A DNA stretch of 39,310 nucleotides from Bacteroidia bacterium (GTDB taxonomy: Bacteria > Bacteroidota > Bacteroidia > Flavobacteriales > Flavobacteriaceae), in contig JAUIFC010000014.1 in NCBI GenBank assembly GCA_030429455.1, forward strand, positions 1 through 39,310. The letters are read 5' to 3'. Positions 19,356-37,953 of this stretch are shown piece after piece. How positions within the stretch are numbered: the first letter of the stretch is position 1; each line of letters starts with the position of its first letter. Position numbers and translations under genes: made by a program. A model generated the notes under the pieces. The model worked only from the letters and a program-made list of their open reading frames with translations, was not told where the DNA came from and made no database searches.

Positions 19356-19596
19356 AGGTTTGTGGTATATTTTTTCCTACTCTTAAGGCTTTTCGGTTTC
19401 GCCTCGTTTTTTTGAGTGGTTTCTGAGCTCCACTAAAGTTTCTATCGACAAATCTAATTATTTTTCTTAATGAATTCAAAATATGAAACTAACATTTCAA
19501 CAAAAGGATTTTACATTCATAGATCAATTAAAAATATAAGTATGGATTTATGCGTTGTTTAAGTATCTTTTTTAATTTTACAGCAAATTATTAATC

Positions 19597-28919: not shown

Positions 28920-29549
28920 TTACCTTTTCCTGCCGAAATCGGCAGGAATTTCTCCCCATAATTTTGTAGGCCATTTTACAATTTTGGTGGTATATGTATT
29001 TGTTTTTAACCATTGTTCAGCTCTTTCTACAAGTTCGAAGACATCTTTGTTTTTACGTGTCCTTTGTAGTTTGGAGTTGCACTTTTTCTTATACACCCAA
29101 CCAATGGCAATTTTAGAATCGGAATAAATGATACGATTGCTTTGTTGTTTTTTTAAAAATGCTAAACCATGTACCAATGCTAAAAATTCTCCAATATTAT
29201 TAGTCGCTTGTTCAAAAGGACCTTTGTAGAACATGACTTTTTTGGACATCGTATCTACACCTCTATATTCCATAATACCTGGATTTCCACTCGACGCAGC
29301 ATCAACTGAAATAGAATTTAAGATCACATCTTTGGGTAGTTGTGGCTTTAATTTGTCTAAACGTTTTAATCTACTAAATTCATAAAACCCCATATTAAAA
29401 GCTTCAACCGCAGTTTCCTTATTTGGAAAGGATTTGTATTTTGCCTGAGGATAACCTTTTATTTGAAGCTTACAAGCCTCCCAAGAGTCATAAATATCGG
29501 GATTATGCCCATCCCAAACGACGTAGTATTTTGTTTTGTTTTTACTCAT
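28920..29549 (-). CDS. Viroplasmin-domain ribonuclease H
   Basis: 209 residues. The N-terminal 45 residues (KYYVVWDGHNPDIYDSWEAC...) are the viroplasmin/RNase H N-terminal RNA-DNA hybrid-binding domain. The type 1 catalytic domain follows, with ISVDAASSGNPG (Asp), ATNNIGEFLALVHGL (Glu), IIYSDSKIAIGW (Asp) and an Asp in the last residues (IPADFGRKR). It cleaves RNA in RNA-DNA hybrids. The 3' end of the gene contains a 22-bp palindrome, listed separately. Confidence 0.93.
   Translation of the reverse strand: MSKNKTKYYVVWDGHNPDIYDSWEACKLQIKGYPQAKYKSFPNKETAVEAFNMGFYEFSRLKRLDKLKPQLPKDVILNSISVDAASSGNPGIMEYRGVDTMSKKVMFYKGPFEQATNNIGEFLALVHGLAFLKKQQSNRIIYSDSKIAIGWVYKKKCNSKLQRTRKNKDVFELVERAEQWLKTNTYTTKIVKWPTKLWGEIPADFGRKR
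28927..28948. terminator. Palindrome in the end of the RNase H gene, possible terminator for the POT operon
   Basis: TTCCTGCCGA-AA-TCGGCAGGAA is a 10-bp perfect inverted repeat with a 2-nt centre, 40 nt past the POT stop and inside the last codons of the convergent RNase H gene. It is unusually GC-rich here. It could fold in either transcript; neither strand has a long T-tail, so termination is uncertain. Confidence 0.4.
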
Positions 29550-29687: not shown

Positions 29688-29999
29688 ATGACTAATTTTC
29701 AAAATTCCGACGATAGGCTGAAAGATGCTTACCTAAGAGCCAGACAAAAAACTGAAGAACTAAAGAGTTTTTACTACAGTCTTATTTCATACTTTATTGT
29801 CATTCCTTTTCTTATTTATATTTGGTTCGAATTTACACCTTACACCATTCAATGGTTTTGGTTTCCTTTAGCGTTTTGGGGCTTAGGCTTAGTGATTCAA
29901 GCCTTTAAGATTTATGGAAAAAACACCCCTTTTGGAGACAAGTGGGAGCGAAAACAAATTGAAAAATACATGAAAGAAGAGGAAGAAAATTCATTGTAA
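29688..29999 (+). CDS. 2TM-domain membrane protein, first of a tandem pair
   Basis: 103 residues from the ATG at 29688 (MTNFQNSDDRLKDAYLRARQ); an ATG 11 codons upstream belongs to sequence that does not resemble the family. DAYLRARQKTEELKSFYYS is the conserved lead of the 2TM domain, followed by two hydrophobic segments (about 33-52 and 61-78) and a charged tail with DKWERKQIEKYM. The domain also occurs at the end of LytTR-associated sensor kinases in Bacteroidota. It is followed after 21 nt by a paralogue, then by the AAA+ operon. Confidence 0.85.
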   Translation: MTNFQNSDDRLKDAYLRARQKTEELKSFYYSLISYFIVIPFLIYIWFEFTPYTIQWFWFPLAFWGLGLVIQAFKIYGKNTPFGDKWERKQIEKYMKEEEENSL

Positions 30000-30020
30000 A
30001 ACTTTATAAACCTGATCATT

Positions 30021-30341
30021 ATGGAAAATTTAAGCGAAAAATCAGATTACAGAAAAGAAGATGCTTACCTGAGAGCAAAAAAGAAAGTAGAATCTATCAA
30101 AGGTTTTTATTGGCATTTAGCCGTTTATATCGTTGTGAATGTTGTAATTGTTAGCATTATCGTATCTAGTGCAAATGTAAGTGTGTTTAGCGTAGCTGCC
30201 TTATCTACACCTTTGTTTTGGGGCATCGGGCTTGTTTTCCACTTCTTAGGTGTTTTTGGTGCAGATGTATTTTTTGGCTCCAACTGGGAAAAACGTAAAA
30301 TTAAAGAGTTCATGGATAAGGATTTGAATAATGACTTTTAA
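30021..30341 (+). CDS. 2TM-domain membrane protein, second of a tandem pair
   Basis: 106 residues. DAYLRAKKKVESIKGFYWHL aligns with the first copy, with two hydrophobic segments (about 31-50 and 60-85) and the conserved tail NWEKRKIKEFMDKD. The stop lies only 11 nt before the next start, so this gene is probably cotranscribed with the five-gene AAA+ system. The tandem copies have diverged in their membrane segments but keep the charged ends. Confidence 0.85.
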   Translation: MENLSEKSDYRKEDAYLRAKKKVESIKGFYWHLAVYIVVNVVIVSIIVSSANVSVFSVAALSTPLFWGIGLVFHFLGVFGADVFFGSNWEKRKIKEFMDKDLNNDF

Positions 30342-30352
30342 AAAAATTTTAG

Positions 30353-30976
30353 ATGCTCACCGACTTTCTAAAGGGCTTATTTGAAGATGGCAAACTTAAA
30401 GTCGAAAAAAAAATAACCGATTTTGATCCCGATGATGAAGACATTGCCCTAGACATCTTAGATTATTATTTTGAAAATTACAAGTTTGCTTTTCCACATA
30501 GTTCAGAATTAAAGTTTAATTCAAATACCTGCATTTGGGCTTTAAAATATTTATACAGACTATCCCAAGCGCTACTCATAAGAGAATTGTCGGAAGAGGA
30601 AGTCCAATCACTTTTACCTAAATATGCTTATGGCAAATCAAGAGACGAAGTTCTTTCTGTAGACCTCATTTTTCAATTTATACCTCAACTGTATAGAATT
30701 ATTGAAGAATTATCTCCATCGGACATTCTATCCGATGAAATAAAACAGCTTTCAAACGACTGGGGTTTCTCTCTTTTTGAAATAGCAGAAGATTTTACCG
30801 CAGATTATATTGAAAACGATGATATCCTTTTGGAGATTTTCTGCAACAGAATAATTGAAAACAAATGCAATAAAGCCATTGTATCGCTTCGGATAAAAAA
30901 TCAAATTTTAGTTCAATTAGGTGCCCATAAAGATTACTTTTGGAAAGACTTAAAGTTCGAAAATGATGCTACGTAA
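30353..30976 (+). CDS. Predicted all-alpha protein of the AAA+ ternary-type system
   Basis: 207 residues, strongly acidic and helical by composition, with no membrane segment or catalytic motif. Its opening MLTDFLKGLFEDGKLKV is followed by long helix-like stretches up to the C-terminus (VSLRIKNQILVQLGAHKDYF). It overlaps the AAA+ ATPase gene by 14 nt. It fits one of the bpX accessory domains predicted next to MoxR-vWA-beta-propeller systems, but I cannot assign which by eye. A role as adaptor for the ATPase is inference from its constant position beside it. Confidence 0.72.
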   Translation: MLTDFLKGLFEDGKLKVEKKITDFDPDDEDIALDILDYYFENYKFAFPHSSELKFNSNTCIWALKYLYRLSQALLIRELSEEEVQSLLPKYAYGKSRDEVLSVDLIFQFIPQLYRIIEELSPSDILSDEIKQLSNDWGFSLFEIAEDFTADYIENDDILLEIFCNRIIENKCNKAIVSLRIKNQILVQLGAHKDYFWKDLKFENDAT

Positions 30977-32117
30977 AAATGAAAAAATTGACCAACTCCA
31001 AGACGTTTTAAATCATATAAAAAATACGTTTGTTGGAAAAGATCAAATTATAGATTTGTTGGGTATTTGCTTAATTGCACAAGAAAACCTCTTCCTTTAT
31101 GGCCCTCCAGGAACAGCAAAGAGTGCCATAGTCAAAGAACTTTCTAAGACTCTTAAGGGCAAAACTTTCGAATATTTATTAACAAGATTTACAGAGCCAA
31201 ATGAACTTTATGGCCCATTTGACATTAGAAAATTAAAGGAAGGCGATTTGATTACCAATACCGAAGGCATGTTGCCAGAGGCGACATTAATTTTTTTGGA
31301 CGAGTTATTTAATGCCAACAGCGCCATACTTAATAGCCTCTTGATGATACTTAACGAAAAAGTCTTTAAACGCGGAAAAGAAACTAGAAAAATACCAGCG
31401 CTCATCTCTGTTGGTGCTAGCAATAACTTACCAGAAGACGAAGCTTTACAAGCCTTGTTTGATCGTTTTTTGGTGAGAGTAAAATGTGATAATGTCGCTT
31501 CAGAATTATTAGAAAATGTATTAAATGCAGGTTGGAAACTTCAGCAAATGACAACCAAAGAAATTCCGAGTATAGAGGTATCGGTTATTAAAGAATTGCA
31601 AGAAGATTTGCTTTCCATAGACTTAACCCCTATTCGAAAACCTTACATCGACATCGTTTCTAGACTAAGGAATGCAGGAATATCGGTATCCGACAGGAGA
31701 GCAGTTAAGCTACAAAGGCTTGTCGCGGCTAGCGCTTTAATATGTAAAAGAGAGAAAGCTATTTTGTCAGATTTATGGGTATTTAAATTCACTTGGGAAA
31801 ACAATGAACAACGAGAAATCCTAAACAATATAGTTGAGTCCATAATAAAAAATGATACTGAAGACCTTCAACATCCAAGATCGATGGAAAGCAATATTCC
31901 CGATCCAGATGAACTCTATAAAGATGCCGAAACACTATTGGAAAAATGGAAAAATCCTGACACAACCACTACTGAAAAAGCCGTCATAAAAGATAAACTT
32001 CGTAACCTCACGGGAAGATGCGACTGGATAAGCAACATAGACAAAAGAGAATATGTTCTTAGACCAATTAACGAACTATGGGAACTGATTATCAATACCA
32101 AAGAAATAACGAACTAA
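30963..32117 (+). CDS. MoxR/RavA-type AAA+ ATPase
   Basis: 384 residues. Walker A GPPGTAKS (47-54), Walker B LIFLDE (109-114), FNANSAILNSLL after it, a sensor-1 region VGASNNLPEDEALQALFDRF (150-169) and the arginine finger at Arg168. Length and the GASNNLPED motif match the RavA branch of MoxR. A C-terminal part (about 240-384) is family-specific. MoxR proteins work with vWA-domain partners to remodel or load protein complexes, and a vWA-like partner is encoded two genes downstream. The first Met may be either of two adjacent ATGs (30963 or 30966). It overlaps the gene before it by 14 nt. Confidence 0.93.
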   Translation: MMLRKNEKIDQLQDVLNHIKNTFVGKDQIIDLLGICLIAQENLFLYGPPGTAKSAIVKELSKTLKGKTFEYLLTRFTEPNELYGPFDIRKLKEGDLITNTEGMLPEATLIFLDELFNANSAILNSLLMILNEKVFKRGKETRKIPALISVGASNNLPEDEALQALFDRFLVRVKCDNVASELLENVLNAGWKLQQMTTKEIPSIEVSVIKELQEDLLSIDLTPIRKPYIDIVSRLRNAGISVSDRRAVKLQRLVAASALICKREKAILSDLWVFKFTWENNEQREILNNIVESIIKNDTEDLQHPRSMESNIPDPDELYKDAETLLEKWKNPDTTTTEKAVIKDKLRNLTGRCDWISNIDKREYVLRPINELWELIINTKEITN

Positions 32118-32120
32118 ACA

Positions 32121-32816
32121 ATGCAAGAAGACGTCATTTTACAAATTGACAAATCCCACAAAGCATCCCTAGCATCATTCAGACATTTGCCTTCTATAAT
32201 GATTACTGAATTTGAGGATTTTGTTTGGTTAAGATGTGCATTAAAAAATGAAGAGTTCGGCAAACAACTGTTTAAAATAAAATTTTCGAATTGGTATAAC
32301 CTTTCTGAGAATTACCTTTTTAAAAAGGACAAACTAACCCCAGAACGAAAATTCTTTCAAGCGGATTGGGTATCCATAGACGAGTACTTTCCCGTTACTT
32401 TACCCAATTTTGCATTAGGAGGAAAAGCAGATGTTTCTAATCCAAAATTAGTATTAAAAACACATCCTAATTTTGAAAAACCTATAGGCATGTTGGCTAA
32501 AACTTCGGATGTGAAGACCTATTTGAATACAGCTCCACATTTTAGGTTCAAAAATTTTAAATATGCTGAAAGCAAAGACGGGAATATGTTTTTGTTTGGA
32601 ACACCGCTATTGCCAATAATTGGCTTGTCCTTTTGGCAATACTACAATATCATTCTGCCAAATGGAAAAATTTTAGAATCCAAACTCCACATGGATATCT
32701 TTCGAAAACAATTCAATACAAAAGATGTTGTGTTGATTAAACTCGATTCGTCTTATGATGTAATTTTGAATCAAAATATTAAAGCTCTAACCAGACAAAG
32801 CATCCTGGAATCTTGA
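32121..32816 (+). CDS. Unassigned protein of the AAA+ ternary-type system
   Basis: 231 residues, no membrane segment. It begins MQEDVILQIDKSHKASLASFR and is rich in aromatic residues, with FGTPLLPIIGLSFWQYYN near the middle and beta-strand-like segments at the end (DVVLIKLDSSYDVILNQ). The gene is 3 nt after the AAA+ gene and its TGA overlaps the TTG start of the next gene (TTGA). Its fixed place between the AAA+ ATPase and the vWA/propeller protein fits a bpX-type linker component; I do not recognise a family beyond that. Confidence 0.7.
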   Translation: MQEDVILQIDKSHKASLASFRHLPSIMITEFEDFVWLRCALKNEEFGKQLFKIKFSNWYNLSENYLFKKDKLTPERKFFQADWVSIDEYFPVTLPNFALGGKADVSNPKLVLKTHPNFEKPIGMLAKTSDVKTYLNTAPHFRFKNFKYAESKDGNMFLFGTPLLPIIGLSFWQYYNIILPNGKILESKLHMDIFRKQFNTKDVVLIKLDSSYDVILNQNIKALTRQSILES

Positions 32817-35242
32817 ATCAAAAAATTACACATAGCAGTTTAGAGTATTTTAAATCGTACTCCGATTATTTTTGGAGTTGGGAAGAACACGGTGAAGTAA
32901 TTCAATCTCAACCTTTTAGTACAACTATTGGATATAGAGAAGATATTGTTAGAGTTTTAGAAGATGTTTCTCATGACATTTCGCCGCGTTTTGGCTCAGT
33001 CCTTCTGATTATCTATGCCTGTTCTCATCATTTTAAGCCCTATACCTACGACGAAGCTCTGCAAATGATTAGAAACGCTAAAGACGACGACACAGTATCG
33101 GATCAAGTTGTGGAATACCATGTGGTTAAAGCCTTTAAGCTGCTCAAGACCATAAATGCCTTGCCCGATCATCTTAAAAAAGGACAAAAAAGAGTACTAT
33201 TATTAGCCGAAATTCTGAAGGAAAACAAGCTTACAATTCCCAATTATAGCGAAATTTTAAAGGACTTCAATTCTGGTAATTCTGACGATGTCATATTTAA
33301 GAAAAAGTTTCAAATCACTTATGCGGAACTTCTTGCGGACTTTCATGTGTTGTCCAACGCAGACAATGAGTTATCTTCCACCGAAATACTTCAAGAAAAA
33401 CTAGAAACAGGCGTCATAGGATTACAAAAACAAGATCTGCCTTTAGAAAAAAAAGACATTTTAGCCGAACTTTTAAAGGAAAAGGAAACTGCCGCATTAA
33501 GCGATTTGGCAAAACACTTTATGGGCAGTCTAAAAATCCCTATTCATTTGGAAGATACAAGTGATATTTCTTTAGGTGGCGTATCTGACGTTTCAAACAA
33601 AGGCGATTTTGACAAACTCCTACTGAGCGAACTGGCTTATAGCGACGATGTGTTTTTATCCCGACTAATAAATAATGAAGCCCTTTACTTTAAAAGAGAA
33701 GCTTCTCCAGAGAACCTGACTAAAAACAGAATTATCCTTTTAGATGCCACCATCAAAGTTTGGGGATCGCCAAGACTATTGGCTTTAGCCTTGACTTTAG
33801 CCTTTAAATTTCATCCTAAATCTAAACTAAATACAAAATTAATTTTATTGGATGGAGAAAGCTACCTAGATAATGCCATCGACAATGTCGACCAAATTAA
33901 AGAAGCGTTGAAATTTCTATCGCCTTATTTGGACTGTAGTTTAAGTTTAAATGCTGTCATCAACTCTAAAGAAATCAGCAAAGAAGACGAAGTCATATTT
34001 GTGATTGAAGAATCGAATTTTTATGAAAAAAAACTTCAAAAAGTCTTTAATTTAAATAAAAAACTAATTGATTTTCTGGTCACTATAAAGCGAGATGGTC
34101 TTGTAAATTATTTCAGCATTGTAAACGAAAGTTTAAAGAAATTGGGGAAAGTGACCATAAATATGGAACAGGTCGTTAATACCAAAAGAAGATTTACAAA
34201 GGCGACCCGAAAAACGTCGATTCAAACCGATTTGCCATTTTTTCCTGCATTTTATGACCGCGCACCAACCTACCCGATTCTACATTGTGCCACACAGTAT
34301 CATTTAGAATCCAGTTTAATTTATTTACCCAATGGTGGCGCGATTGTTAAAACCAGATTTAATGAACTGGTCTACTATCCCAAAAAACAACCTAAAGGAA
34401 AAGCGGGTTATACCATAAAAAACAACACAGGAAATTATAAATTCAATTTTACTTTAAGCAAAACGAAGGATAAAGTTTATTTTTTGACCTATAGCCCGAG
34501 TAAATTAGCTGGGTTTTCTGTGATAAACTTAGATGATTTTTCTATTGCATATGTTGATTTAAAAACATTGATTAACAAAGAATTTCGTCGCTTTAAGGTA
34601 ACAACTCATGGTGAAGATTTTTACATTCATGCGGGCTCCGAGTCGTATATTTTTAACAGAATAGAAAAAAAATTATACCCTGTACGAGAGCCGAAATCGG
34701 ATGAAAAAAAAGGGAAAGACAGTAGAGTAAATTACAACCTTACAAGTGTGGAAACACCCTTTGTAAAAATGAACATCGTAAGAATCACAACCGATGGTTG
34801 CTTGGTCTTTAATGCCAAAAAACTTGACTTTCAGTCTTGGGATAAAAACCATTTACATTTTGCGCCAGAACACAGATTGGTGTTCAAAGGCAATAAAGAA
34901 AAGCATACCTACATTGCGACTTCAAGAACAACAGTATTGAAAAAAACACATGTTTTTGACAATCCTAAAATCAAATTTCGGCATGTTAGTTTTAAAGACG
35001 GCAGTGAAATCCTTTTTGACAATAAAGGTTTTGCGCACTTAAAGAGTTCTGACAAATACCTTCCTGAAATAACTGTCAAAATGCAACTCAACGCGCCGGT
35101 GAGCATTTATGTGTCAACAGGAGAAATTTCAGCTCAAGAGCATTTAATAAATGACAAGCTGAAGCTGTCTAAAATAAATGCCAAAGAAGCTCATAAAATG
35201 TATCTTCAGCCTTTTATTCAAAATATAATAAACGCATATTGA
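32813..35242 (+). CDS. vWA-like plus beta-propeller protein
   Basis: 809 residues from a TTG start that overlaps the preceding stop. The N-terminal third (1-290) is helical. Residues about 300-450 look like a vWA domain: NRIILLDATIKVWGSPRLLA with Asp311 at the place of the first metal ligand. The MIDAS motif DxSxS is degenerate here (Asp311-Ala-Thr313-Ile-Lys315). From about 487 to 780 the sequence shows repeated beta-strand units (YLPNGGAIVKTRFNELVYY and similar) like propeller blades. Fusing vWA and propeller in one chain is consistent with the MoxR-vWA-beta-propeller systems. Most likely it is cytoplasmic and a partner of the AAA+ ATPase. Confidence 0.75.
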   Translation: MNQKITHSSLEYFKSYSDYFWSWEEHGEVIQSQPFSTTIGYREDIVRVLEDVSHDISPRFGSVLLIIYACSHHFKPYTYDEALQMIRNAKDDDTVSDQVVEYHVVKAFKLLKTINALPDHLKKGQKRVLLLAEILKENKLTIPNYSEILKDFNSGNSDDVIFKKKFQITYAELLADFHVLSNADNELSSTEILQEKLETGVIGLQKQDLPLEKKDILAELLKEKETAALSDLAKHFMGSLKIPIHLEDTSDISLGGVSDVSNKGDFDKLLLSELAYSDDVFLSRLINNEALYFKREASPENLTKNRIILLDATIKVWGSPRLLALALTLAFKFHPKSKLNTKLILLDGESYLDNAIDNVDQIKEALKFLSPYLDCSLSLNAVINSKEISKEDEVIFVIEESNFYEKKLQKVFNLNKKLIDFLVTIKRDGLVNYFSIVNESLKKLGKVTINMEQVVNTKRRFTKATRKTSIQTDLPFFPAFYDRAPTYPILHCATQYHLESSLIYLPNGGAIVKTRFNELVYYPKKQPKGKAGYTIKNNTGNYKFNFTLSKTKDKVYFLTYSPSKLAGFSVINLDDFSIAYVDLKTLINKEFRRFKVTTHGEDFYIHAGSESYIFNRIEKKLYPVREPKSDEKKGKDSRVNYNLTSVETPFVKMNIVRITTDGCLVFNAKKLDFQSWDKNHLHFAPEHRLVFKGNKEKHTYIATSRTTVLKKTHVFDNPKIKFRHVSFKDGSEILFDNKGFAHLKSSDKYLPEITVKMQLNAPVSIYVSTGEISAQEHLINDKLKLSKINAKEAHKMYLQPFIQNIINAY

Positions 35243-37953
35243 TGACCATTAGGCTTACATATTCGACAGATAGACATGAGTTGGTTAGTGCATTTTACAT
35301 TCATTCAGAAAATCCGGATGACTGGTTAAATGTATTGAATGCTAATCATTTAGACCTTGAAGAAATCCATTGTTATCCAACTCCAAAGTCCATTGCAGAT
35401 ATTCGGTTATCTGGTGTATTTGTTATACTTAAAACCCCTCTAAAATATAATGAATGTGAGCTTAGACATCCTTTCTATCAATTGGGAAATCAAATGTATC
35501 TCCCCTTTAATACCGAATTATTTCCTCCAGTAACCAAGGACGAAATAAATGGATTGTCGTTATACCCTATTCAGTGTTTTCATAAAGACATCGGACTTAT
35601 TGGTTGGGAAAAAGAGGAAGCGCTTAATTGGAAAACCCTTAGTTTCGACATTAAAAAGGGCAGTGATCCTTGGGATTTGGCCACTCATAGGTCTTTTACA
35701 GTTCCTAAACTAACAAGCCTATCACTTATTTCGCCCGAAAGCGAAAATGAAGTTATAGATGAACTGGAATCTGAAATTGACAAAAAAGACTTGTCAGATA
35801 TTCCTTTAGATACAAATGAAAAACGTAACTATAAAGACGCGCTGATTTCTAAAATTGCCAAACCTCTTCTAAAAGGAGGTCTTGGAATTTTAGGCGCAAT
35901 TCTAGGCGGCTTAGGCATATTGGGGATTTTTCTATCAAAATTGTTTCCAAATTCCAACGGAAGTAGTCATGCACAGTCTTTTGAGAAAATGATGAATAAC
36001 AATTCGTCCAAACCAATGAAGCCCAATGCCTTGCATAAACTGCATGAATGGCTCAAAGCCAATCTCGACAAATTAGAAAAACAACAACAAAAAGAGCTGA
36101 ACAAACTCCTTAAGATGTTTGATAACAATATTTCTGAGGCTTTAAAATACGCCATTCCCTTAGGAGGTGACGAACTAGGACGAGGAGACGATGTTCCAAG
36201 TTTCAAATTATCAAAGTCAACACCTTCTTTTAATTTAGGACGTTTAGGTACTCGCGTGTCTTCGTACGGATGGGATTTAGGGAACCACTATTATGAACTA
36301 CGACAAAAATATATTGCAGCTGCAAAAAAGGAATTGGAACTTAAGAATTTCAGAAAAGCAGCCTATATCTATGCTCATCTACTCAAAGATTATCACAATG
36401 CAGCAAATGTGCTAGAACAAGGCGCCTATTATGAAGAAGCCGCAGTTCTTTATTTAAAAAAGATGAAAAACAAGGCTGCTGCTGCTTCATGTTATGAGAA
36501 AGGAATGCTCTACGAAAAAGCCATAGAAATTCAAAAGGAATTGGGTAACAACGAAAAAATAGGTGATTTATATGCATTAGCCAATAACAAACAACGCTCT
36601 GAGGACTATTATTCACTTACGTCCAACGAATATTTGGACAGAAAAGACTTTTTGAATGCGGCAAGAGTTCAAAAAGAAAAACTTAAGGCCTTGGAAACGT
36701 CAAAAACTTTGCTGCTTGAAGGTTGGAAAACCTCATCAAAATCTGAAATTTGTTTAACTACCTTTTTTAATGAATCGTTTGAAACAACTCCAAAAGCATT
36801 CCCAGAGCTTATCCATTCTGTTTACAAAAACGACACCTCAAGTCATCTAGAATCCAAATTTCTGAACGTACTTCAAAAAATACCTTTAAAAGACTATGCT
36901 GCTGAAGACCTGAGTACAGAAATTGCTTATCAGATTGTAAGTAAAAAGATTACCCAAGGCAATCATAAAGAGGTTCACAAGCTTAAACATTTTGTGACCG
37001 ACTCATTTTTAGAAAGCGACCTCACCCGTTTCATGACTCAGAAACCGAGAATCCCAAAGGCTAACCTGACAACGATAAAACTAGACACAAACATCACTTG
37101 GACCGATGCCATTGCTCATAGAGAAAGTATCATTTTAACAGGAAATAACCTAACGCATTGGTTCGTTTGTAGAGTAAATAAATATGGAAACAAAGAGTAT
37201 TACACACTTAATAACAAGTACGCAGAAGGCAAAAGTTTTACACTAACTAATAATCCGCTCTATTCTGACGAGATTCTAATTCTATTTACAAACGCTCATA
37301 AAGGTATTTCGGAAAAGCTCATTATGCATCAAAATAAATACTTTGAGAGAACCCTGACGCTCTCTCACTATTATCAATTTCAAGAAGATGGTGTAAATTT
37401 CAGCTTAAGTACTGACCATTATTTCAAAATTGACAGGCAATCAGAAATCGTAAAATACGACAAGGATAGCAAGTTAATAGGAAATGTAACACTTAATAGA
37501 AGTACGTTTAGGCATAGTTCAAAAATTCAATATGCTGAAGGTTTTGTGTTCATGTATAGCAACAGTCAATTCAATGCTGTTGAAGAACATAATGGAGTTG
37601 TTCACTCTTTTGATTTAAAATCAGGCATTAAGGATTTTACAGTTCTCAATAGCACAAACATTTTGGTAAAAACCTACAGTGGCATTGCTATTCTTGGATT
37701 TGTCGAAAAAGACTTTAGACTTAAAATTCCATTTTTTTCAAGCGATTTTTTTGGAGAAGAAGCATTCTTTTTAGGGAGTAATAAGGCCGTCGTTTATTCT
37801 AAACAAAAAATCGTAGTTTTTGCTTTTGAACAACACCAAGCCTATCAATACAAAGTCATCGAAAATGAAAGTACGATTAAATGCCTTCCCATCAGTCGAA
37901 GTGAAATCGCTGTTCTTACCTCAGACAAGGAAGTTTTGATATATAGTATTTAA
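35242..37953 (+). CDS. Large protein: N-terminal domain, Gly-rich hydrophobic segment, TPR-like repeats, beta-propeller
   Basis: 903 residues from the ATG at 35242, which overlaps the previous stop as TGATG; a TTG one codon earlier is also possible. Residues 1-150 form a domain with LFPPVTKDEINGLSLYPIQC, likely one of the bpX domains (bpX6 by general resemblance, unverified). Residues about 208-236 are a Gly-rich hydrophobic segment (GGLGILGAILGGLGILGIFL) that could cross or insert in a membrane. A linker with a lysine- and glutamine-rich helix follows, then TPR-like helices (about 345-470, FRKAAYIYAHLLKDYHNAANVLEQ-type repeats), and a beta-propeller (about 605-903). It is the last and largest gene of the operon. 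Confidence 0.75.
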   Translation: MTIRLTYSTDRHELVSAFYIHSENPDDWLNVLNANHLDLEEIHCYPTPKSIADIRLSGVFVILKTPLKYNECELRHPFYQLGNQMYLPFNTELFPPVTKDEINGLSLYPIQCFHKDIGLIGWEKEEALNWKTLSFDIKKGSDPWDLATHRSFTVPKLTSLSLISPESENEVIDELESEIDKKDLSDIPLDTNEKRNYKDALISKIAKPLLKGGLGILGAILGGLGILGIFLSKLFPNSNGSSHAQSFEKMMNNNSSKPMKPNALHKLHEWLKANLDKLEKQQQKELNKLLKMFDNNISEALKYAIPLGGDELGRGDDVPSFKLSKSTPSFNLGRLGTRVSSYGWDLGNHYYELRQKYIAAAKKELELKNFRKAAYIYAHLLKDYHNAANVLEQGAYYEEAAVLYLKKMKNKAAAASCYEKGMLYEKAIEIQKELGNNEKIGDLYALANNKQRSEDYYSLTSNEYLDRKDFLNAARVQKEKLKALETSKTLLLEGWKTSSKSEICLTTFFNESFETTPKAFPELIHSVYKNDTSSHLESKFLNVLQKIPLKDYAAEDLSTEIAYQIVSKKITQGNHKEVHKLKHFVTDSFLESDLTRFMTQKPRIPKANLTTIKLDTNITWTDAIAHRESIILTGNNLTHWFVCRVNKYGNKEYYTLNNKYAEGKSFTLTNNPLYSDEILILFTNAHKGISEKLIMHQNKYFERTLTLSHYYQFQEDGVNFSLSTDHYFKIDRQSEIVKYDKDSKLIGNVTLNRSTFRHSSKIQYAEGFVFMYSNSQFNAVEEHNGVVHSFDLKSGIKDFTVLNSTNILVKTYSGIAILGFVEKDFRLKIPFFSSDFFGEEAFFLGSNKAVVYSKQKIVVFAFEQHQAYQYKVIENESTIKCLPISRSEIAVLTSDKEVLIYSI

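What the first reader, a model, noticed from the sequence alone, without database searches (positions are those of the whole stretch)
29688..37953. A compact MoxR-vWA-beta-propeller-type system led by two 2TM proteins
Seven codirectional genes run from 29688 to 37953 with gaps of at most 21 nt and several overlaps (30963/30976, 32813/32816, 35242). The core five combine a RavA-type AAA+ ATPase, a vWA-like protein with a propeller, and a second propeller protein with TPR-like repeats, plus two proteins I cannot assign. This composition fits the predicted MoxR-vWA-beta-propeller ternary systems with bpX domains, for which I know of no biochemical work; they are thought to act in biological conflict or complex remodelling.
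Basis: partly seen in the sequence, partly recalled or inferred. Interest (0 to 1): 0.82.

Follow-up and report, generated by a model that had tools for sequence, protein, structure and literature searches.

The report
MoxR-vWA-propeller operon, RNA-repair-linked kin
This is a five-gene bacterial machine built around a ring-shaped ATPase, of a kind so far only predicted from sequence; its relatives in some other bacteria often sit beside RNA-repair enzymes and sets of odd tRNA genes, which gives a testable clue to what it may do.

Summary
Genes 30353-37953 form a beta-propeller MoxR-vWA ternary system: bpX4, bpMoxR, bpX2, bpX0-vWA-propeller-bpX1, and bpX3-TM-TPR-propeller. All five proteins exceed Pfam cut-offs. 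Models support a propeller in the last protein and, less firmly, a vWA and part of a propeller in the one before. The gene order recurs in 49 of 49 loci examined, three cut by contig ends. Kaur et al. 2020 described this kind: new member of a known kind.

Correction: the two leading 2TM genes are not part of it. In two congeners without the system a 2TM gene sits at the same RNase H; no 2TM match occurs in the 49 loci. Only the window's genome among 27 of its genus has the system, which suggests horizontal gain.

Lead: in a sister clade the operon sits among RNA-repair genes, retron-type genes and arrays of divergent tRNAs; 40 control windows show almost none. The window's own clade lacks this, except a Tenacibaculum ADP-ribose/NAD cluster. 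The window's genome has a divergent tRNA array with RtcB on another contig. An RNA-damage role is a hypothesis.

The parts
29688..29999 (+). 2TM protein a: adjacent, perhaps co-transcribed, but not part of the system
   Evidence: PF13239 E 8.7e-24; a fused 2TM-2TM gene beside the same RNase H in two congeners without the system
30021..30341 (+). 2TM protein b: adjacent, not part of the system; ends 11 nt before the core
   Evidence: PF13239 E 3.1e-24; same as above
30353..30976 (+). C: bpX4 protein (207 aa)
   Evidence: PF19920 E 6.4e-41
30963..32117 (+). D: bpMoxR AAA+ ATPase (384 aa), P-loop GPPGTAKS
   Evidence: PF20030 E 2.6e-101, AAA_5, AAA_lid_8; RavA E 4e-37 by sequence in PDB
32121..32816 (+). 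E: bpX2 protein (231 aa)
   Evidence: PF19918 E 1.6e-45
32813..35242 (+). F: vWA component, bpX0-vWA-propeller-bpX1 (809 aa)
   Evidence: PF19915 E 2.4e-27, PF19917 E 5e-13; model, folds
33713..34165 (+). vWA-like domain of F (residues 301-451); D311 kept, MIDAS otherwise degenerate (DxTxK)
34283..34708 (+). propeller-like part of F (residues 491-632)
35239..37953 (+). G: third component, bpX3-TM-TPR-propeller (904 aa)
   Evidence: PF19919 E 8.4e-31; model
35815..35901 (+). hydrophobic glycine-rich helix of G (residues 193-221), possible membrane segment
   Evidence: helix in a part of the model with pLDDT under 50; hydrophobicity read from the sequence, no TM predictor run
36277..37035 (+). 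TPR-like helical repeats of G (residues 347-599)
   Evidence: paired helices, pLDDT mostly 73-94; no Pfam TPR hit in G itself, weak ones in the g156 homologue
37069..37947 (+). beta-propeller of G (residues 611-903)
   Evidence: Foldseek to propeller proteins, best E 7e-8, probability 1.00

Best explanation
Genes C-G encode one AAA+ remodelling machine, probably tethered to the membrane. SHOWN: five-part composition, domain order, conserved gene order, patchy and once plasmid-borne distribution. INFERRED from RavA-ViaA-type pairs: D forms a hexamer that engages F through F's vWA domain. ATP hydrolysis remodels a client held by the propellers of F and G. G is anchored by its hydrophobic helix and offers a TPR/propeller docking surface. 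C (bpX4) and E (bpX2) are dedicated subunits or adaptors. INFERRED from context: the machine is an accessory stress/conflict module, and in its sister clade it works beside RNA-repair enzymes and divergent tRNA arrays. The client is therefore most likely part of an RNA-damage (tRNA-cleavage) response. My estimates: composition and family 0.97; AAA+ remodelling at the membrane 0.65; conflict/stress role 0.6; RNA-damage role 0.35 for the family and about 0.25 for this copy.
For: Pfam hits to bpX0-4 and bpMoxR. RavA-like ATPase. Propeller and vWA-like folds. Order C-D-E-F-G in 49 of 49 loci, 3 cut by contig ends. Patchy: 10 of 395 phylum genomes, 19 of 299 in g128, 1 of 27 in own genus, the window's own; full copy on a Hymenobacter plasmid. 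Context in clade B: at least one of RNA ligase/RNase_T/metallophosphoesterase/Band_7/p261 in 15 of 18 newly fetched g128 loci, 0 of 40 control windows. RNA ligase in g128: 12 of 19 system-positive, 10 of 280 negative (Fisher p 3e-11); in 12 of 12 both lie on one contig within 14 kb. tRNA arrays in 19 of 20 evaluable g156/158 loci, at least one tRNA in 14 of 22 g128 loci, against 4 of 40 controls. Own genome: 7-tRNA array beside RtcB on contig C31; RtcB in 2 of 27 genomes of the genus.
Against: No panel RNA-repair gene, RtcB or tRNA in the window. In the window's own MoxR clade the linkage is absent: no tRNA in 7 of 7 (window, L040-L044, L074), no RNA-repair panel gene in 7 of 7; only Tenacibaculum (L040) has an ADP-ribose/NAD cluster. 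Within g156 and g128 the loci are related by descent, so counts are not independent and the Fisher p is too small. Positive g128 genomes are mostly large (15 of 19 at 5.0 Mb or more), as are those with the ligase: a confounder. Four of 22 g128 loci (L066, L112, L116, L129) lack these genes in the stretch fetched. Two of 11 other comparable tRNAs of the window's genome are also divergent (64%, 67%). Nothing biochemical was tested; the F model is low confidence.
Confidence: 0.55

Rival explanations
1. Direct anti-phage or conflict system: F/G propellers sense an invader and the MoxR-vWA pair sets a threshold and releases a membrane effector (N-terminal part of G), as Kaur et al. proposed; RNA repair is only a neighbour.
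For: Published inference (PMC7159879, section 22 read). Patchy, once plasmid-borne distribution. SWIM/WGR genes beside the operon in 9 of 22 g128 loci; the pair tested from L068 matches PADLOC SWIM_XIII and WGR_XIII, and an RT-like ORF adjoins in 4 of 10 loci scanned.
Against: No strong PADLOC hit to the core. bpX3 of G (46% to L040) is more variable than its TPR part (60%) but not than its propeller (40%). 37 of the 43 positives lie in one genus, where the loci fetched share much of their neighbourhood, unlike fast turnover.
Confidence: 0.25
2. Housekeeping-like maturation chaperone for a membrane or respiratory complex, like RavA-ViaA.
For: D is RavA-like; RavA-ViaA acts at the inner membrane (PMC9489729, passages).
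Against: Absent from the 26 other genomes of the genus and from most relatives sampled; no respiratory gene noticed among the neighbours scanned, though this was not searched for.
Confidence: 0.12
3. The linkage to RNA repair and tRNAs is an island or insertion hot-spot effect without shared function.
For: tRNA genes are common integration sites (established knowledge); clade A copies lack the linkage; retron-type genes share the region.
Against: Array tRNAs are not ordinary targets: median 63% to same-anticodon housekeeping tRNAs of G845 against 84% for a cross-family control. The linkage has different layouts in g128 and g156. Integrases at these loci were not looked for.
Confidence: 0.25
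4. The two 2TM proteins are genuine subunits (membrane effectors) of this copy.
For: 11-nt spacing suggests co-transcription; weak PADLOC '2TM' effector match E 0.0026.
Against: A 2TM-2TM gene beside RNase H in two system-free congeners; no tblastn match near the core in 49 loci.
Confidence: 0.05

Closest known systems
MoxR-vWA beta-propeller ternary system (Kaur et al. 2020, eLife, PMC7159879, subsystem 4)
   Same: bpMoxR with GxxxTAKS P-loop, vWA protein with C-terminal propeller, third protein with TM, TPR and propeller, extra bpX genes; patchy in Bacteroidota
   Different: Two 2TM genes precede it by chance. In sister clade B, RNA-repair genes, retron-type genes and tRNA arrays adjoin the operon, which the section and passages I read do not mention
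RavA-ViaA (E. coli)
   Same: RavA-like AAA+ ATPase with a vWA partner; membrane association proposed here, reported there
   Different: No bpX subunits or propellers in RavA-ViaA (recalled); D matches RavA only over D residues 29-282
Systems with interspaced tRNA arrays (Altae-Tran et al. 2023 (authors recalled), PMC10910872, passages)
   Different: The passages name no MoxR-vWA-propeller operon at the arrays; MoxR-vWA-VMAP is mentioned there only with CRISPR loci; supplementary figures not seen
tRNA array with RtcB/slipin regulon of Anabaena (trn operon, TrcR; PMC10272220, passages) and tRNA array units of mycobacteria (PMC12803027, passages)
   Same: Accessory tRNA array, in Anabaena co-regulated with rtcB and a slipin gene
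   Different: No MoxR-vWA-propeller operon is named in the passages I saw; the Anabaena array is on a megaplasmid and rtcB on the chromosome
FtsH MoxR-vWA ternary system
   Same: Divergent vWA, same P-loop variant (stated in PMC7159879)
   Different: No FtsH among the flanking ORFs scanned

Membership tests
MoxR-vWA beta-propeller ternary system | bpMoxR AAA+ component | tested here: met
   PF20030, 337 bits, cut-off 27. Generic MoxR proteins also pass this cut-off at about 30-60 bits, so the margin matters
MoxR-vWA beta-propeller ternary system | vWA domain in the partner | tested here: inconclusive
MoxR-vWA beta-propeller ternary system | propeller C-terminal to the vWA | tested here: inconclusive
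MoxR-vWA beta-propeller ternary system | helical N-terminal and beta C-terminal domains of the vWA protein (about 62% of systems) | tested here: met
   bpX0 and bpX1
MoxR-vWA beta-propeller ternary system | third component with TM, TPR and propeller | tested here: met
   bpX3; TPR-like helices and propeller; the TM helix is low confidence
MoxR-vWA beta-propeller ternary system | highly variable N-terminal region of the third component | tested here: inconclusive
   bpX3 and linker 46% to L040, TPR 60%, propeller 40%; bpX3 and linker 20-29% to three others; only 4 relatives aligned
MoxR-vWA beta-propeller ternary system | P-loop GxxxTAKS (often present) | tested here: met
   GPPGTAKS in D
MoxR-vWA beta-propeller ternary system | acts in biological conflict | not testable with these tools
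   No experiment
RavA-ViaA | RavA equivalog score | tested here: not met
   NF010054, 160 bits, cut-off 681
Known defence systems (PADLOC-DB 2.0.0) | strong match of core proteins | tested here: not met
   Core: only IetA E 0.005 and DolB E 0.013, both on the AAA+ protein

The most novel reading that the evidence does not exclude
Beta-propeller MoxR-vWA ternary systems are the motor of a tRNA-damage surveillance and repair device. Arrays of divergent tRNAs that sample many anticodons act as baits or replacements for anticodon nucleases. Band_7, RNA ligase, exonuclease and metallophosphoesterase proteins repair or clear the fragments, and the AAA+ machine assembles or remodels the repair complex at the membrane.
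Probability: 0.25. Interest if true: 0.88.

Novelty: new member of a known kind. Interest (0 to 1): 0.58.

Why it matters
The searches listed no experimental work on a beta-propeller ternary system (open-licence papers only). The linkage found here turns 'some conflict role' into a specific test: does the operon change tRNA cleavage, repair or survival under tRNA-targeting toxins and phages? It also bears on what bacterial arrays of divergent tRNAs are for.

Tried and rejected
2TM proteins as subunits: rejected. Simple empty site: not shown; in congeners with both genes, RNase H and 3-HAO lie on different contigs or at least about 60 kb apart. Viral contigs: 5 pattern stretches, no relative. 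Phage records: 16 matches, all under 60% identity. Foreign base composition: GC 0.34-0.36 in the operon, like the flanks. L12/ClpS insertion in F: no Pfam hit. PDB by sequence for F: none. Promoter/terminator scans: no more than shuffles. The label 'Ploop261' in scripts was a guess: Pfam shows only weak ATP-grasp hits (E 0.07); I call it p261.

Burroughs and Aravind 2016 (review of RNA repair systems) is not held. As I recall it, it links Band-7 RNA-repair modules to a tRNA-like RNA; it may already note part of the linkage. 'Retron type XIII' for the PADLOC labels WGR_XIII/SWIM_XIII is recalled; a paper search found nothing.

Counting notes. Panel seeds came from L040, L065-L069 and L071, the discovery loci. 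For g128 the test set is the 18 loci L112-L129; misses L112, L116, L129 (the ligase of L116's genome lies about 13 kb from bpX0, outside the stretch). For g156/158 RNase_T, metallophosphoesterase, Band_7, cREC or p261 occur in 16 of 20 (L070 dropped: contig end; misses L078, L085, L089, L090); these share descent and include two discovery loci. Both g128 searches drew 299 genomes; I take them to be the same 299. Two of the 22 ligase hits are weak (G946, G1099), both in system-negative genomes. Control windows were chosen by hand at round coordinates in positive genomes. Counts include the window's own genome.

Changed on checking against the calls: vWA, F propeller and variable-N-terminus rows set to inconclusive; the membrane estimate lowered from 0.7 to 0.65; a published report of tRNA arrays with RNaseH and exonuclease genes found and added, interest lowered from 0.60 to 0.58; split G claimed only for loci where I saw it.
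Full report
WHAT IS THERE. Seven codirectional ORFs lie at 29688-37953. Five of them, C-G, match the Pfam families built for the MoxR-vWA-beta-propeller ternary systems: bpX4, bpMoxR, bpX2, bpX0+bpX1 and bpX3, E-values 5e-13 to 3e-101, all over the curated cut-offs. The two genes in front are 2TM-domain proteins. The nearest flanks are ordinary: two POT transporters and an RNase H1 upstream, a 3-hydroxyanthranilate dioxygenase and CdaA downstream. No tRNA lies in the window.

THE 2TM GENES. In congeners G557 and G559, which have no true bpMoxR, one gene with both 2TM domains sits divergently beside the same RNase H; this is 2 of the 20 congener RNase H loci fetched. tblastn with the two 2TM proteins finds none in the fetched stretches of 49 relatives' loci. 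The 2TM pair is an older neighbour. The operon landed behind it, 11 nt after its end, so it may use its promoter (inference).

DISTRIBUTION (own genome included). bpX2: 1 of 149 genomes of the family. bpX0: 10 of 395 in the phylum, 3 of 170 genera; 43 of 395 in the order, 4 of 108 genera, 37 of the 43 in genus g156. In genus g128: 19 of 299. True bpMoxR: 1 of 27 in the own genus (E 1e-101 against 3e-16 or weaker for generic MoxR). A full copy lies on a Hymenobacter yonginensis plasmid. The closest relative is Tenacibaculum sp. M341: MoxR 83% identical, the other four 42-57%. Gene order C-D-E-F-G is kept in 49 of 49 loci (L041, L042, L070 cut by contig ends); in some, such as L128, C stands 0.6-1.3 kb from D. 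In a MoxR tree of 50 rows the window falls with Tenacibaculum, Lewinella, Chitinophaga, a Bacteroidetes MAG and the plasmid ('clade A') on one side of a branch, and g128 (of the window's family) with g156/158 ('clade B') on the other. The root is a midpoint and the tool warns that long branches meet. With absence from the 26 other genomes of the genus, this suggests horizontal gain.

NEIGHBOURS OF RELATIVES. Pfam on neighbours: Tenacibaculum has NAMPT-like, adenylosuccinate synthetase-like, PARG-like, two ADP-ribosylglycohydrolase and NADAR genes around the operon. g128 has RNA ligase (RLIG1; also by PDB sequence), metallophosphoesterase, RNase_T exonuclease, Band_7 and endonuclease V. g156 has cyclic-phosphate receiver (cREC_REC), RNase_T, RNaseH_like and DUF434 genes. 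I turned these into a panel and searched new loci and 40 control windows from positive genomes. In g128 15 of 18 new loci have RNA ligase, RNase_T, metallophosphoesterase, Band_7 or p261; no control does (one control has an endonuclease V hit). The ligase is present in 22 of 299 g128 genomes and the system in 19; 12 have both, each time on one contig within 14 kb (Fisher p 3e-11, not corrected for descent or genome size). SWIM/WGR genes adjoin in 9 of 22 g128 loci. From L068 they match PADLOC SWIM_XIII and WGR_XIII; of the L066 pair only the SWIM gene does. An RT-like ORF (YADD) lies beside them in L116, L118, L119 and L121, 4 of 10 loci scanned.

tRNA ARRAYS. In g156/158, 19 of 20 evaluable loci carry 3-17 tRNA genes just downstream of the operon, 177 in all; L085 has none and L070 ends too early. 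No Ala, Gly or Val tRNA is among them. All 17 Leu are 74-76 nt (8 housekeeping Leu of two genomes: 83-87), and all 13 Cys are 83 nt (no housekeeping Cys was in the set; that tRNA-Cys is normally shorter is general knowledge). In g128, 14 of 22 loci carry at least one tRNA. Of 40 controls, 4 carry any, 5 tRNAs in total. tRNAs of 19 g156/158 loci are a median 63% identical to housekeeping tRNAs of the same anticodon in G845 (176 comparisons, a few of them tRNAs upstream of the operon); housekeeping tRNAs of G1166, from another family, are a median 84% (28 comparisons, range 69-96). Within G845 itself the array tRNAs are 57-72% identical to same-anticodon housekeeping copies. Array tRNAs score well as tRNAs there (up to 75 bits), so they are not decayed.

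THE WINDOW'S OWN GENOME. Contig C31 has seven clustered tRNAs (His, Gln, Asp, Arg, Cys, Asn, Lys). Of the 6 with a G845 counterpart, 5 are 56-63% identical and Lys is 81%, like the genome's other Lys copies (80%). Of 11 other comparable tRNAs fetched from this genome, 2 are also low (64%, 67%). Beside the cluster is an RtcB ligase. A second RtcB lies beside a release-factor-like gene on C294. RtcB is found in 2 of 27 genomes of the genus; the other, G536, has no tRNA in the 17 kb around it. The C31 contig is 5246 bp, so its distance from the window is unknown. This is one genome and shows no linkage.

AGAINST. Clade A, to which the window belongs, shows no tRNA in 7 of 7 and no RNA-repair panel gene in 7 of 7; the only hits are Tenacibaculum's own ADP-ribose/NAD genes, from which those seeds came. 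The clade B counts rest largely on shared descent. The RNA-damage reading is thus a lead carried over from the sister clade.

LITERATURE. Kaur et al. 2020 (PMC7159879: outline and abstract, section 22, passages) describe the system and call it enigmatic; a search of its main text finds 'RNA repair' only in a reference title. [quoted passage not shown] the g156 arrays look like this, so such arrays are not new, but those passages name no propeller operon. Paper searches listed none that I could see tying propeller ternary systems to RNA repair or tRNA arrays; most listed papers were seen only as listings, supplements were not readable and the 2016 review is not held. Passages were seen of PMC9489729, PMC8195603, PMC9503650, PMC10272220, PMC12803027 and PMC7824862.

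VERDICT. A sound, complete member of a known but functionally untested kind.

Noticed in passing
L170 (G000 contig C31) 188-1465 and 3887-5245: Seven clustered tRNA genes, at least five of them divergent, and a divergent RtcB ligase in the window's own genome, on a 5.2 kb contig.
   Followed up: partly
L195 (G000 contig C294) 8465-10610: A second RtcB beside an RF-1-domain protein, an RtcB-PrfH-like pair (name recalled).
   Followed up: no
L086 2739-5642 and other g156 loci: Arrays of up to 17 tRNA genes; by eye several in L086 share a similar anticodon stem (CCGG) with different anticodons, as if one scaffold had been copied with new anticodons.
   Followed up: partly
L116, L118, L119, L121: RT-like ORF with SWIM and WGR genes (retron type XIII-like by PADLOC labels) beside the ternary operon.
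   Followed up: partly
L069, L071, L072, L073: In these g156 loci the third component (G) is split into two genes; in L069 the first bears bpX3 and the second weak TPR matches.
   Followed up: no
L176 4179-4678: Four tRNA-like genes in G1166 with unusual ends and anticodons, about 8 kb from the RNA ligase.
   Followed up: no
window 19370-19438: DUF805 RNA motif (Rfam RF03081, 78.6 bits) on the minus strand.
   Followed up: no
window 28920-29549: RNase H1 with an N-terminal Cauli_VI domain, divergent from the 2TM genes; the 2TM pair is one fused gene in congeners G557 and G559.
   Followed up: yes
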